Source: Variovorax soli NBRC 106424
GTDB taxonomy: Bacteria > Pseudomonadota > Gammaproteobacteria > Burkholderiales > Burkholderiaceae_C
Direction: 5' to 3'
Length of the DNA: 64,000 nucleotides
Assembly (NCBI RefSeq): GCF_001591385.1
Contig: NZ_BCUU01000003.1
Coordinates: 1 to 64,000, forward strand
Shown here piece by piece: positions 47,551 to 52,647 of this stretch (positions are counted from its first letter, which is position 1; every line of letters starts with the position of its first letter). The position numbers were made by a program, and so were the translations under genes. Under the pieces are notes generated by a model. The model made no database searches. It was not told where the DNA came from and worked only from the letters and a program-made list of their open reading frames with translations.

Positions 47551-47560
47551 TCGAAGAAGT

Positions 47561-47607
47561 TGGTGCGGCTGGCAGGATTCGAACCCACGACCCCTTGGTT
47601 CGTAGCC
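47561..47607 (-). other. Prophage attachment site: 3' part of tRNA-Arg (ACG)
   Basis: Minus strand reads from the anticodon loop CTACGAA through CCAAGG, variable region, T-arm with TTCGAAT, CAGCCGC acceptor strand, A and encoded CCA. The 5' half is missing: in place of the expected CCTTGG before the loop there is GCAGG. So this is the leftover 3' end of a tRNA-Arg(ACG) gene, the usual product of phage integration. The intact tRNA should sit at the far (right) end of the prophage, outside the window. Phage genes begin just to the right. Confidence 0.85.
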
Positions 47608-47737: not shown

Positions 47738-48043
47738 TTATTGCTTTGGCGGCGGCGGGACCATCCCATTCTGATCGGGTACGACGGCAGGCGCATGCCG
47801 GCGCGGCGCATTTGGGTCATCTTTTGGAGCCAGGACAGTCACGCCTCCGTCGGGATTTCGGTGCGCATATACCTCGCCCTTGGTATCCCGAAAATCACGA
47901 CCGCCTTGTCCAACACCAGCAGGTGGCAATGGGGCCGACGGCTGAGGTGGGCTGCCAACTATGTACTTCCACCAGAACGGCGCAGTGCCGCTGACGATAA
48001 GAGCAGCAATGATTCCACCAAGCCACTTGAACATCTGAGACAT
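47738..48043 (-). CDS. Small membrane-anchored prophage protein, unknown
   Basis: 101 residues. MSQMFKWLGGIIAALIVSG is a single N-terminal membrane helix or signal anchor; the rest is soluble, Pro-rich, with AHRNPDGGVTVLAPKDDP and a PPPPK end. GGAGGAG 7 nt before ATG 48043 decides the start. No function recognised. Located between att and the LexA box, as prophage morons often are. Confidence 0.6.
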   Translation of the reverse strand: MSQMFKWLGGIIAALIVSGTAPFWWKYIVGSPPQPSAPLPPAGVGQGGRDFRDTKGEVYAHRNPDGGVTVLAPKDDPNAPRRHAPAVVPDQNGMVPPPPKQ

Positions 48044-48172
48044 GGTCTCCTCCGTTCCTTGCCGATTGGAGGGGCGCATCATTGATCGGCGTGTCGCCTG
48101 AATCAATATGCTGAAGGCCGTACACAAGTTGGGGCCCTCGTGTCCGATGCTCAAGACCCTCCGCCCAGCAAA

Positions 48173-48192
48173 TACTGTACATTAACACAGTA
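48173..48192. promoter_or_regulatory. LexA (SOS) box
   Basis: TACTGTACATTAACACAGTA: CTGT-N8-ACAG with the extended arms AATACTGT/ACAGTATT perfect over 8 bp (48171-48194). This is the E. coli-type LexA site also used in betaproteobacteria. It is 16 bp before ATG 48209 and in the divergent gap with the gene ending at 48043. Confidence 0.85.
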
Positions 48193-48208
48193 TTTTGTGG
48201 GTCTAGCA

Positions 48209-48508
48209 ATGCGAGTCAGGATGCGCCGCCGCTATCGGGATGGGGTCGCGCTCAGCAAGGATGATTTCCACGCCCAGCCGTGGGCCAAGGGAATGCTCCA
48301 ACTGGAGACTGTCGAGGGCCGGACACGCCTCGGGCTCTGGGAATCGTGCCCTGGCTATGCCACGCCACCGCTCGGCCTTCTCTGGCGCCCTGAAATCGCG
48401 GCCTGCTACAGCGACACCATCAGCTTCGCCGGCTTTGAGAAGGTCGGCGACCGCTGGTGCTACCAGGTCTGGTACTGCGAGACGAGATCAGCCGCCGCTG
48501 TCGATTGA
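48209..48508 (+). CDS. SOS-controlled small prophage protein, unknown
   Basis: 99 residues, starting MRVRMRRRYRDGVALSKDDF; basic N-terminus, Trp/Cys-rich body (GLWESCPGY, RWCYQVWYCETR). No family recognised. ATG 48209 follows a strong LexA box by 16 bp, so transcription should rise on DNA damage. An upstream in-frame start would include the LexA box and is unlikely. Could be a lysis-linked, anti-repressor-like or host-takeover factor; none of this can be read from the sequence. Confidence 0.6.
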   Translation: MRVRMRRRYRDGVALSKDDFHAQPWAKGMLQLETVEGRTRLGLWESCPGYATPPLGLLWRPEIAACYSDTISFAGFEKVGDRWCYQVWYCETRSAAAVD

Positions 48509-48609: not shown

Positions 48610-48879
48610 ATGAATCTTCCGGATCCCAACGCCCTCAGGGCCGACGCCGCATTGCTGGGTGGACACGTATCAGGCGTGTACTTCCTCTATGACGGAGTAG
48701 AGCTTGTCTACATCGGGCAGGGTTGGAACTGCTTCCTCCGTGTCGCAGAACACACCCGCAAGGACTCTGACAAGCGCTTCACCCATTGGACATTCCTACC
48801 AGTCGAGTCGGAGACGGAGCGCAGGGCGCTTGAGCGTCAACTCACAAGGCTGCACTCACCGCGCCACAACAAGATTTGA
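48610..48879 (+). CDS. GIY-YIG nuclease-fold protein
   Basis: 89 residues. GVYFLYDGVELVYIGQGWNCFLRVAEHTRKD is the GIY-YIG core (GVY...YIG, with the Arg and His positions after it), and ERRALERQLTRLHSPRHNKI carries the later Glu and an Asn near the end. Minimal domain only, no DNA-binding extension. An in-frame GTG at 48604 is an alternative start. Prophage accessory gene. Confidence 0.78.
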   Translation: MNLPDPNALRADAALLGGHVSGVYFLYDGVELVYIGQGWNCFLRVAEHTRKDSDKRFTHWTFLPVESETERRALERQLTRLHSPRHNKI

Positions 48880-50547: not shown

Positions 50548-52629
50548 CTACCCGACGAGCTGGAGCGTCTTCACTTCGGCCACCCACTTGATCGTGGCGG
50601 CAGCGACACCGGTCACGCGGATCTCCAGGCTTCCAAGGGTGGTGTTGGCGAATGCCGTCACGGTCCAAGCACTGGCACCGCCGATAGCGGCGATGGGGGT
50701 GACGGTCAGAGTGCCGTCGATCTGCGTTGCAGCAGCGTTTGCACCCCGGCTGATGGCGCCCGTGATCTTGAATGCCGCCCGATCTCCGAACGTGGCGACC
50801 TTCGCGGATACGGTGGCCTCGAAGCAGTACATCGAGTTGTTTGGGAGGACGACCGATGTTGCTGCCGCTGGAGTGCCGCCATCAGCGGACAGGCCGGTCG
50901 TCGTGGCATTGGTGGTGGTCGCCCGTAGTACGGCGTGCTGTTCTTGAGCGTCTCCTTGTGACGTGAAGTTTCCCGAGGCCCAAGCCCAGGTGCCGTAGAG
51001 CCCACGAGTCGTTGCTTGGGATCCACCCAAGATGCCCGAGTAGTCGCCGCTGGCAGTGTTGTTGCTTCCGCCTCCGATGGTGGAAAAATTGACACTGGCC
51101 GAATTGGTGTTGCCTCCTCCGATGGTCGAATAGGCGCCCCCGGCGACGTTGGCATTGCCGCCGCCGACCGTCGCGTAGTTCGCCGTAGCCTGGCAACTGA
51201 TGCCGCCGGCAACGGTCGCGTTGGATGCAGAGGCGGTGTTGCCAGCGCCGCCGCCGATCACTGAGAAGTTTCCCGAGGCAATGTTGTTCTGTCCACCAGC
51301 GATAACTGAGTTGTTGCCGCTTGCCACTTGACCGCTGGACGTGCGCTGCGTCTGCCAATCGACAGCGCGCGGGCCTCTCTTGCCACCTCCGGTTGAAGTT
51401 CCATCAGCAACATGAGCGGACAGAGCCCCCGCGCCCTTTGGCGAGATCGCCGCATCGACGTTCGTCGCGCCATTCGTGGCGGTGAGGCTGACGACGGGGA
51501 CCGTTGCGTTGGGAGAGGCCGTGTTGACCGCGTCCGTCCAGTTGGTCAGCCCGCCCCCACCACCGCCGCCAACCAGTGCCGTTCCGTCAGCCTTGGCATA
51601 GTCGATGCAGCGCCAGTTGCCCGAGCCCAGCGATTCCATCGTCGCCACATCGCCCGCGGCCGTGGTGATGTTGGCTGCGCCGGGCAGGATCAAGCTCGTG
51701 GCGTTGTGAGTCAGCGTCAGCGCCCCAAGGAATCGAACACGCCGGATTGCACCCGTAGCGATCGAGTCGAACGCGGTAACTGTGGTTGTGCCGCTGACGG
51801 TCACCATGTTGGCGGCTGCAGCGCCGATGTTGACCGTCGCCCCCGAAGCCAATGCGACCTGGGGGGCTTCGTTGAGTGCACTCGACAGGGTGCCGCCAGT
51901 GAATCCGCCGCCGGGCGTCGCCAGCGCCTGGCCGTTGGCTCGCAGGTAGTTGACGCATCTCCAGTTGCCAGAACCGAGCGAGACGAAGTCGGCTACATCG
52001 CCCGCTGCGGTCGTGATGTTCGCGCCTGTTGGCAGGATCAGGGATGTGCCGTTGTGGGTCAACGTCAGCGCGCCAGAGAACACTACCTCTCGCTTCGCGC
52101 CAGCCGCAATGGTGTCGAACGCGGTGATCGTCGTAGTGCCCGTGACGGTGATCGAGTTCGCGGCCGCCGCACCGATGTTCACGGTGGTGGCTGAGGCGAG
52201 AGTGACTTGCGGGGCTTCATTGAGTGCACTGGTGAGCGTGCCGCCGGTGAAACTCCCTGCACCACCTACCCCGCCGAATGCCTGCCGCTTGTCCGAGGTC
52301 GCATCGATAGTGAACGTCGACGCCCCAGCCACGAACTGGAACAGTTGCATGTAGGTCGACGTGTTCAGCCAGTTCGTCGTGTTGGTCGCAGCTGTCACCG
52401 CTCCGGTTGTGCGGTGCGCAACAACGTAGTTGGTCGCGCTGGCCGTGAGCACTACAGTGCCATTGGCGACGGTGACGCCGTTGAACTCGCCACCGAGGTA
52501 GCCCAGCGTCAGCCCCGTGGTCGTGGCTGGATTGATGCCATACAAGCCGGCAGGACTGACGGATCGGAAGTTCTCCGTCACGCGGGTCTGCCAACCGACA
52601 GCGGCGAGGATGTCTTGAAGGATGGTCAT
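50548..52629 (-). CDS. Phage tail fibre with YadA-like head repeats
   Basis: 693 residues. N-terminal MTILQDILAAVGWQTRVTENF is probably the tail-attachment part. Two tandem copies of a 108-residue module follow (about 129-236 and 245-352), each with LNEAPQV, NIGAAAAN, ITTAAGDVA and LGSGNWRC. Residues about 436-539 are YadA/trimeric-autotransporter head repeats of 14-15 residues (SGNFSVIGGGAGNTAS, YATVGGGNANVAGG, FSTIGGGSNNTASG), which form a left-handed trimeric beta-roll in bacterial adhesins. The C-terminus (about 600-693) is a separate domain, perhaps receptor-binding. Confidence 0.8.
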   Translation of the reverse strand: MTILQDILAAVGWQTRVTENFRSVSPAGLYGINPATTTGLTLGYLGGEFNGVTVANGTVVLTASATNYVVAHRTTGAVTAATNTTNWLNTSTYMQLFQFVAGASTFTIDATSDKRQAFGGVGGAGSFTGGTLTSALNEAPQVTLASATTVNIGAAAANSITVTGTTTITAFDTIAAGAKREVVFSGALTLTHNGTSLILPTGANITTAAGDVADFVSLGSGNWRCVNYLRANGQALATPGGGFTGGTLSSALNEAPQVALASGATVNIGAAAANMVTVSGTTTVTAFDSIATGAIRRVRFLGALTLTHNATSLILPGAANITTAAGDVATMESLGSGNWRCIDYAKADGTALVGGGGGGGLTNWTDAVNTASPNATVPVVSLTATNGATNVDAAISPKGAGALSAHVADGTSTGGGKRGPRAVDWQTQRTSSGQVASGNNSVIAGGQNNIASGNFSVIGGGAGNTASASNATVAGGISCQATANYATVGGGNANVAGGAYSTIGGGNTNSASVNFSTIGGGSNNTASGDYSGILGGSQATTRGLYGTWAWASGNFTSQGDAQEQHAVLRATTTNATTTGLSADGGTPAAATSVVLPNNSMYCFEATVSAKVATFGDRAAFKITGAISRGANAAATQIDGTLTVTPIAAIGGASAWTVTAFANTTLGSLEIRVTGVAAATIKWVAEVKTLQLVG
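51013..51324 (-). repeat. YadA-head-type repeat block within the tail fibre
   Basis: About seven units of 14-15 codons with the pattern x-S-x-I-G-G-G-x-x-N-x-A-S-G. The Asn/Ala/Gly-rich consensus is the same as in trimeric autotransporter head domains. Confidence 0.75.
51574..52245 (-). repeat. Tandem duplication in the tail fibre gene
   Basis: Two copies of a 324-bp unit (52245-51922 and 51897-51574), period 348 bp, encoding modules clearly alike at protein level (TLTSALNEAPQV / TLSSALNEAPQV; SLGSGNWRCVNY / SLGSGNWRCIDY). Could vary in number by recombination. Confidence 0.8.
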
Positions 52630-52647
52630 CGGGATCTTTCGAGGCAA

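What the first reader, a model, noticed from the sequence alone, without database searches (positions are those of the whole stretch)
48173..48508. LexA-controlled small gene at the prophage edge
A near-ideal SOS box stands 16 bp before a 99-residue protein of no known family, pointing opposite to the late genes. SOS-driven prophage genes are often anti-repressors or toxins that link DNA damage to induction. This one may be new.
Basis: partly seen in the sequence, partly recalled or inferred. Interest (0 to 1): 0.6.

Follow-up and report, generated by a model that had tools for sequence, protein, structure and literature searches.

The report
DNA-damage-switched prophage gene family
At the edge of a prophage in a Variovorax-type bacterium sits a small gene behind a textbook DNA-damage (SOS) switch; it belongs to an unnamed protein family whose members often sit behind the same switch and often beside DNA-repair genes, so it more likely helps deal with DNA damage than acts as a toxin or induction trigger.

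Summary
In detail: TACTGTACATTAACACAGTA (48173-48192) ends 16 bp before a 99-residue ORF (48209-48508), 0.6 kb inside a 44.2-kb prophage in tRNA-Arg. Genome counts alone do not prove the box (two sites; a reversed control pattern also gave two), but relatives do: 29 of 42 non-redundant family loci have a box (23 strict boxes in 63 kb upstream, 2 in 317 kb elsewhere), and 22 of 28 loci of a second branch have one within about 32 bp of the start. All three family genes found in this genome have one. No Pfam, NCBIfam, PADLOC or PDB sequence match; 6 of 20 members match PHROG 5560 (function unknown). The model (pLDDT 74) is all-beta without a clear PDB match. SRAP/YedK, an abasic-site protein, is near in 20 of 42 loci; here the next gene looks like a GIY-YIG nuclease. 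Best reading: an SOS-induced DNA-damage-handling accessory protein (0.45). An antirepressor remains open (0.2): both repressor candidates lack the S24 domain, though 5 of 12 related virus records encode it and several family members are not evidently phage-borne. LexA binding, induction and activity are untested.

The parts
48173..48192 (.). LexA-type SOS box TACTGTACATTAACACAGTA (core CTGT-N8-ACAG at 48175-48190)
   Evidence: conserved in relatives
48209..48508 (+). 99-aa protein of an unnamed SOS-linked superfamily (G12, G28, L58, G75-x-E77, Q86-x-W88 invariant in 20 members)
   Evidence: dN/dS; all-beta model mdc9b8c8c85db
48610..48879 (+). small GIY-YIG nuclease-like ORF (mechanical ORF start GTG 48604); possible second gene of the SOS unit
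   Evidence: sequence shows GVY, YIG and downstream R, E, N by eye; PHROG 16880 endonuclease E 0.002, TIGR00194 uvrC E 0.0074, Pfam GIY-YIG 12.6 bits, below the 22.6 cut-off; no CTGK-N8-MCAG between the 48175 box and 54496
47555..47607 (.). prophage attachment-site repeat (3' end of tRNA-Arg), other copy at contig C3:91708-91760

Best explanation
The gene is the first gene of a LexA-repressed unit at the lysis-side edge of a temperate prophage. When RecA triggers LexA cleavage, the unit is switched on and makes a small all-beta protein plus, possibly, a GIY-YIG nuclease. The protein belongs to an SOS-linked superfamily of Betaproteobacteria that is often paired with SRAP (YedK/HMCES-type abasic-site cross-linking protein) and, in single cases, with an exonuclease III-like enzyme or (here) a GIY-YIG nuclease. 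It most likely works as a DNA-damage-handling accessory, binding damaged or single-stranded DNA or the partner enzyme, and protects phage and host DNA while the SOS response and prophage induction run. Shown by sequence: the box, its conservation, the linkage, selection on the protein. Inferred: LexA binding, induction, co-transcription with the GIY-YIG gene, DNA or partner binding.
For: Box conservation: 23 strict boxes in 63,076 bp upstream of 42 non-redundant family genes versus 2 in 316,572 bp elsewhere in the same loci; 29 of 42 loci have a strict box within 1.6 kb or a relaxed one within 60 bp. Second branch, collected by similarity to the C29 paralogue: 23 of 29 rows (22 of 28 loci) have CTGK-N8-MCAG starting within 32 bp of the gene start; 9 boxes in 91,434 bp elsewhere. 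This genome's paralogues at C29 and C13 both have a box; the C29 box was first found by a pattern search blind to the gene. The genome's lexA and recA carry the same box class. SRAP linkage: 20 of 42 family loci, although SRAP is rare (55 matches, some of them fragments, in 25 same-genus genomes). Reverse test: 9 of 32 same-genus SRAP loci have a superfamily gene within the fetched flanks, 6 of the 9 with a box. SRAP also lies directly downstream on the same strand in L047 and, in another family, L115, and upstream in L118. An exonuclease III-like gene (PF03372, E 1.4e-29) follows the C29 paralogue. SRAP/YedK cross-links abasic sites (PMC9436759, abstract) and clusters with SOS polymerases, and has been noted in prophages (PMC3765255, passages).
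Against: The prophage has no detected SRAP (the genome's only match is on contig C4), so the main partner is missing here. The GIY-YIG match is weak and this gene was not found beside other family members in the loci searched. The 42 loci are related by descent, so the counts are not independent events; in the reverse test two pairs (L151/L152 and L156/L157) are near-copies, each from one genome. Distant members in other families mostly lack a clear box (5 of 16 readable loci have one) and sit beside varied genes. None of the 8 SRAP loci chosen from other genera had a superfamily gene, though two other SRAP copies of one of those genomes, G095, do (L115, L121). The reversed control of the box pattern is as frequent as the box genome-wide. 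The fold matches nothing clearly. The protein is only mildly basic (pI 8.4). No experiment exists.
Confidence: 0.45

Rival explanations
1. LexA-controlled antirepressor: SOS-induced protein binds and inactivates the prophage's own non-cleavable repressor, as Tum (phage 186), AntC (N15) and GfoA/GftA (Gifsy) do.
For: Both repressor candidates (C3:79651-80058 and C3:80094-80549) match HTH-type models and no S24 domain, so SOS induction would need another trigger; the box is the only TACTGT-N8-ACAGTA in the prophage; [quoted passage not shown]
Against: 6 of 13 related virus records (5 of the 12 with this family; three of these five have near-identical family genes) encode an S24 protein and still keep the cassette (records may be fragments, and that the S24 protein is the repressor is assumed). 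Superfamily members also occur at loci with no evident phage genes, such as between a LysR-type and an exonuclease III-like gene. SRAP linkage is not explained.
Confidence: 0.2
2. Regulator of the SOS response itself or of RecA (DinI/PsiB-like in role): dampens or tunes SOS or RecA activity so that the phage times its induction.
For: SOS control of the family; dinI homologues lie in LexA-controlled prophage operons of Gifsy phages (PMC3121763, passages); small size.
Against: No DinI or other Pfam match; fold predicted all-beta; no direct evidence.
Confidence: 0.15
3. Toxin or host-takeover protein (for example a division inhibitor or lysis-timing factor) released on DNA damage.
For: Next to lysis-type genes and SOS-controlled; one distant relative (L110) sits beside a KAP NTPase gene and the C13 paralogue beside genes of unknown role.
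Against: No match to toxin or defence models in Pfam, NCBIfam or PADLOC; often next to SRAP instead.
Confidence: 0.1
4. Ordinary SOS-inducible accessory gene with no role in DNA damage; its SRAP neighbourhood is hitch-hiking in a shared mobile cassette.
For: Neighbours differ among distant members; four copies in one genome, some beside resolvase- or IS1595-type ORFs (by eye); the 42 close loci share descent.
Against: SRAP linkage recurs in several arrangements: divergent, downstream, upstream.
Confidence: 0.1

Closest known systems
SRAP/YedK-containing SOS gene neighbourhoods (PF02586; PMC3765255)
   Same: SOS-linked, found also in prophages; family members are encoded near SRAP in 20 of 42 loci
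   Different: The protein is not SRAP; the passages I read of that paper do not mention this family; in this prophage no SRAP was detected
LexA-controlled prophage antirepressors (Tum of 186, AntC of N15, GfoA/GftA of Gifsy; PMC3121763)
   Same: Small protein behind a LexA-type box, outside the immunity region, in a prophage whose repressor candidates lack S24
   Different: Superfamily also at loci without evident phage genes, SRAP-linked, and kept alongside S24 proteins in some relatives; no direct sequence comparison with these proteins was made
hypA/hypB, unnamed LexA-regulated hypothetical genes of Betaproteobacteria (PMC3323433)
   Same: Predicted LexA-controlled genes of unknown function; Variovorax paradoxus is among the species in that figure legend
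   Different: Sequences are not given in the passages seen; identity with this family could not be checked, and it may be the same
PHROG 5560 (unknown function)
   Same: 6 of 20 superfamily members match, best E 3e-9
   Different: The window protein itself does not match; the family has no function assigned

Membership tests
LexA (SOS) regulon | LexA box of the host's type at the promoter or start | tested here: met
LexA (SOS) regulon | LexA binding and damage-dependent induction | not testable with these tools
   needs gel shift and RT-qPCR
SRAP (PF02586) | SRAP domain with Cys2 | tested here: not met
   99-aa protein has no Pfam match and begins M-R-V
SRAP-linked SOS cassette | SRAP gene adjacent to the family gene | tested here: not met
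   seen in 20 of 42 family loci but not in this prophage; the genome's only SRAP match is at C4:104677
LexA-controlled antirepressors | LexA-type box before a small gene outside the immunity region | tested here: met
LexA-controlled antirepressors | cognate repressor not self-cleaving | tested here: inconclusive
   both HTH candidates lack S24, but which one is the repressor is not known; 5 of 12 relatives have an S24 protein
LexA-controlled antirepressors | protein alone induces the prophage and binds the repressor | not testable with these tools
   bench test
LexA-controlled antirepressors | sequence similarity to Tum, AntC or GfoA/GftA | not tested
   those sequences were not fetched; only library scans were run
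DinI family | match to a DinI model | tested here: not met
   no Pfam or NCBIfam match of any kind at E<=1; that these libraries hold a DinI model is recalled
GIY-YIG nuclease (ORF 48610-48879) | GIY...YIG motif with R, E, N catalytic residues | tested here: inconclusive
   motif and residues seen by eye; Pfam 12.6 bits, below the 22.6 cut-off; PHROG 16880 E 0.002; no PDB GIY-YIG match by sequence

The most novel reading that the evidence does not exclude
An undescribed SOS effector superfamily of Betaproteobacteria, in some genomes in several copies on prophages and chromosomes, acts as a functional partner of SRAP. In many loci one LexA operator appears to drive two divergent units (about 60 aa + SRAP on one side, this protein on the other), and in some it abuts or overlaps the start codon, implying leaderless SOS mRNAs. 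The window's copy is a stripped prophage version in which a GIY-YIG nuclease stands in for SRAP.
Probability: 0.35. Interest if true: 0.75.

Novelty: new variant of a known kind. Interest (0 to 1): 0.5.

Why it matters
SOS regulons outside the well-studied gammaproteobacteria are poorly filled in. A family that repeatedly sits directly behind a LexA-type box and near the abasic-site protein SRAP gives a concrete candidate partner for SRAP in bacteria, and a testable reason why prophages carry SRAP cassettes. If it is instead an antirepressor, it would explain how prophages with non-cleavable repressors in this genus sense DNA damage. Either outcome can be decided with one lysogen and a deletion.

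Tried and rejected
Chance box: the genome count alone does not exclude it (reversed control equally frequent; relaxed pattern below its control); conservation does. Longer 122-aa GTG start: unlikely, since relatives begin at MRV and the longer ORF runs over the box. Family by library: Pfam, PHROGs, NCBIfam for the window protein, Pfam for the L005 paralogue and six distant members, and NCBIfam, PADLOC, PHROGs for the 20-member alignment A7 gave no named function; only PHROG 5560 matched several members (6 of 20), three other PHROGs one member each at E 0.03-0.1. PDB by sequence with A7: none at E<=10. tblastn in 50,697 phage records with four family proteins: no match; plasmids: one Variovorax record without annotation in the stretch. 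First AlphaFold job (13 close sequences) was poor, pLDDT 49, and was not used; the second (23 sequences) gave pLDDT 74, pTM 0.63, but only two of its five models were that good. Foldseek best E 0.27 (PDB) and 0.12 (viral); VIA-align best Z 4.1 (lipocalin, PH/PTB and Ran-binding folds), below the level that means anything, so no fold family is claimed. The sigma-70 scan found no promoter at the box, so the leaderless idea is inference from spacing only. Viral-contig scans with four divergent members (L058, L064, L115, L118) found nothing; one with the L005 paralogue gave three loci, two already known. GIY-YIG as a regular partner failed: relatives in viral contigs were one record with an identical protein and one weak match.

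Full report
What is there. The window lies on contig C3 of a 5.6-Mb genome. All 6 genome-contig loci with a relative are Variovorax records, and one search finds the close family only in this genome's own genus (24 of 150 genomes, 1 of 56 genera); contigs of several same-genus G handles have the lengths of those Variovorax contigs, so the genus is Variovorax. The perfect box TACTGTACATTAACACAGTA at 48173-48192 is followed 16 bp later by a 99-codon ORF. Two places in the genome match the 12 fixed bases with up to one mismatch, both perfect; 0.043 perfect ones are expected from composition, but the reversed control pattern also gave two places at up to one mismatch, so the count alone proves little. 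The other site lies on C66 before an ORF that I recognise from memory as an SplB/PA0069-type radical-SAM gene; LexA boxes before splB in Betaproteobacteria are reported in PMC3323433 (passage). The genome has one lexA match and one full recA match; read from their upstream DNA, lexA carries CTGGTTAAAAATACAG and CTGGATATGCGACCAG and recA carries CTGTTCAAGCATCCAG. Hence a relaxed genus box CTGK-N8-MCAG was used below. Genome-wide, its form with TA behind it is not enriched over the reversed control (23 versus 35), so only position-bound counts are used.

The prophage. A 53-bp direct repeat, 47555-47607 and C3:91708-91760, brackets 44.2 kb; the far copy is the 3' end of a complete tRNA-Arg(acg), next to an integrase-type ORF (by eye). 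The gene sits about 0.6 kb inside, facing inwards, opposite to the lysis- and tail-type genes. Two HTH repressor candidates, C3:79651-80058 and C3:80094-80549, match HTH-type models in Pfam and no S24 peptidase. The box is the only TACTGT-N8-ACAGTA in the prophage; other CTGK-N8-MCAG matches there (54496, 54900, 88156) lack the outer bases.

The family. Twelve viral contigs and in a later scan 21, the 12 among them, encode relatives at 62-69% identity. In the 12 the gene lies 0.2-4.0 kb from a contig end, which fits prophage edges (my reading of the coordinates). Pairwise dN/dS is 0.16 in the median over 74 usable pairs, many of them with dS above 1. Profile searches reach further: 10 of 399 genomes of the family sample and 10 of 399 of the order sample, and 3 of 369 of the class sample; all three counts include this genome. 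In the 20 members of A7, G12, G28, L58, G75-x-E77 and Q86-x-W88 are invariant, M1, L30 and L43 nearly so; an M-R-V start and C90 are common but not universal. No curated family describes it; PHROG 5560, function unknown, matches 6 of 20 members. This genome holds three found so far: C3 (window), C29:4997-5371 (E 8.8e-7) and C13:31070-31369 (E 1.1e-9 to the C29 copy).

SOS control of the family. I made a set of 42 loci after removing copies over 97% alike around the gene (7 rows dropped; one further locus, L068, had no family match). It includes some degraded or truncated members and contigs that end before the operon start, and the loci share descent. 22 have a strict CTGT-N8-ACAG within 1.6 kb upstream and 29 have that or a relaxed box within 60 bp. 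By density: 23 strict boxes in 63,076 bp upstream versus 2 in 316,572 bp elsewhere; 13 relaxed boxes in the 60-bp windows (2,520 bp; one, in L135, is probably a chance palindrome) versus 52 in 377,128 bp elsewhere. In many of these loci the family gene is not first: box, then small genes (E81/E87 and others), then the family gene. In the window, L047, L054, L057-L061, L064, L065, L067 and L069 the box is directly before it. A second branch (relatives of the C29 copy, 25 of 121 genomes, all of this genus) gives 23 of 29 rows with a box starting 15-32 bp before the start; L203 and L220 are one place, so 22 of 28 loci. One fetched locus, L214, gave no match in my script and was left out. Among more distant members 5 of 16 that could be read have a clear box (three further loci of that set were not printed by my script), and 4 of 6 in the class sample including this genome's C29 copy. 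So the control is strong in the genus and patchy beyond. In several loci, such as L061, L064, L206 and L221, the box abuts or overlaps the start codon. That would suit a leaderless mRNA, but no promoter or transcript was tested.

Neighbours. SRAP (PF02586, E 6e-31 and 3e-29 for two examples) lies near the family gene in 20 of 42 loci, although the 41 genomes searched hold only 0-7 SRAP matches each, 55 in the 25 same-genus genomes, some of them fragments. Starting instead from 40 SRAP loci (my script re-found SRAP in 36), mostly of genomes without a close family hit, an iterated profile found a superfamily gene in 9: 9 of 32 loci of the genus and 0 of 8 from other genera; 6 of the 9 have a box. 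Two pairs among the 9 are near-copies within one genome, one member (L158) is frame-shifted, and some of these loci recur, so the sets overlap. In the usual arrangement the box lies between SRAP on one strand, with a conserved ORF of about 60 aa in between (21 rows, several of them duplicates), and the family gene on the other. In L047 and L198 SRAP follows the family gene on the same strand; likewise, in another family, L115, while in L118 SRAP precedes it beside phage portal-type ORFs. The C29 copy is followed by an exonuclease III-like gene (PF03372, E 1.4e-29), the only one of the 29 rows with it. L107 and L108 have a LexA-like S24 gene upstream. In the window no SRAP is near, and the genome's only match is on C4; the downstream ORF is GIY-YIG-like, weakly.

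Structure. With 23 sequences the best model reaches pLDDT 74 and pTM 0.63: a short helix and six strands in a meander. No PDB or BFVD match is convincing.

Interpretation. Shown by sequence: a selected gene behind a LexA-type box of the host's class; a family that often shares this position; recurrent linkage to SRAP. Inferred: LexA repression (I put this at about 0.93), co-expression with the GIY-YIG gene (about 0.6), and a role in handling DNA damage (0.45). SRAP proteins trap abasic sites (PMC9436759, abstract) and cluster with SOS polymerases; the authors of PMC3765255 (passages) also noted SRAP in prophages and proposed a damage-sensor role there. The antirepressor reading stays at 0.2. 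Its best support is the HTH-only repressor candidates; its main problems are the members at non-phage loci and the 5 of 12 relatives with an S24 protein (records may be fragments, and three of the five carry near-identical family genes).

Literature. Searches (listings with titles and abstract starts; 97 was empty) showed no paper naming this family. PMC3323433 (passages) reports two LexA-regulated hypothetical genes of Betaproteobacteria, hypA and hypB, without sequences in the passages seen; hypA could be a member. I therefore do not claim that the family is unreported.

Noticed in passing
G000:C66:22026-22045 (locus L071): Second perfect TACTGT-N8-ACAGTA of the genome, before a radical-SAM (SplB/PA0069-type, recalled) ORF with a divergent small ORF on the other side; a likely further SOS gene.
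   Followed up: partly
L222 (IMG/VR contig, 43,023 bp): An IMG/VR contig starts at a GIY-YIG gene whose protein is identical to the window's; if it is this prophage, automatic prophage calling cut off the SOS-controlled gene.
   Followed up: no
L001, L003, L004, L011, L012, L044, L049, L197 and others: Conserved ORF of about 60 aa (MENxPAxLWIAACAHRLQQQWHTVDPL...) divergent from the family gene, on the SRAP side (no Pfam match for the L004 copy).
   Followed up: partly
L107, L108: Apparent unit: LexA-like S24 gene, superfamily gene, 240-aa gene without a Pfam match (L108 copy tested), IS1595 zinc-ribbon-type gene (L108 copy tested); order shared by two genera.
   Followed up: partly
L187, L188, L190, L191 (genome G1130): Four superfamily copies in one genome of another family of the class, two with intact and two with damaged boxes; resolvase- or IS1595-type ORFs (by eye) near some.
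   Followed up: no
window 47741-48046, minus strand: Small ORF with an N-terminal hydrophobic stretch between the attachment site and the SOS box; no family match.
   Followed up: no
window 50548-52647, minus strand: Predicted 699-aa tail-type protein with many NNxASG-type repeats resembling trimeric-adhesin head repeats (by eye).
   Followed up: no
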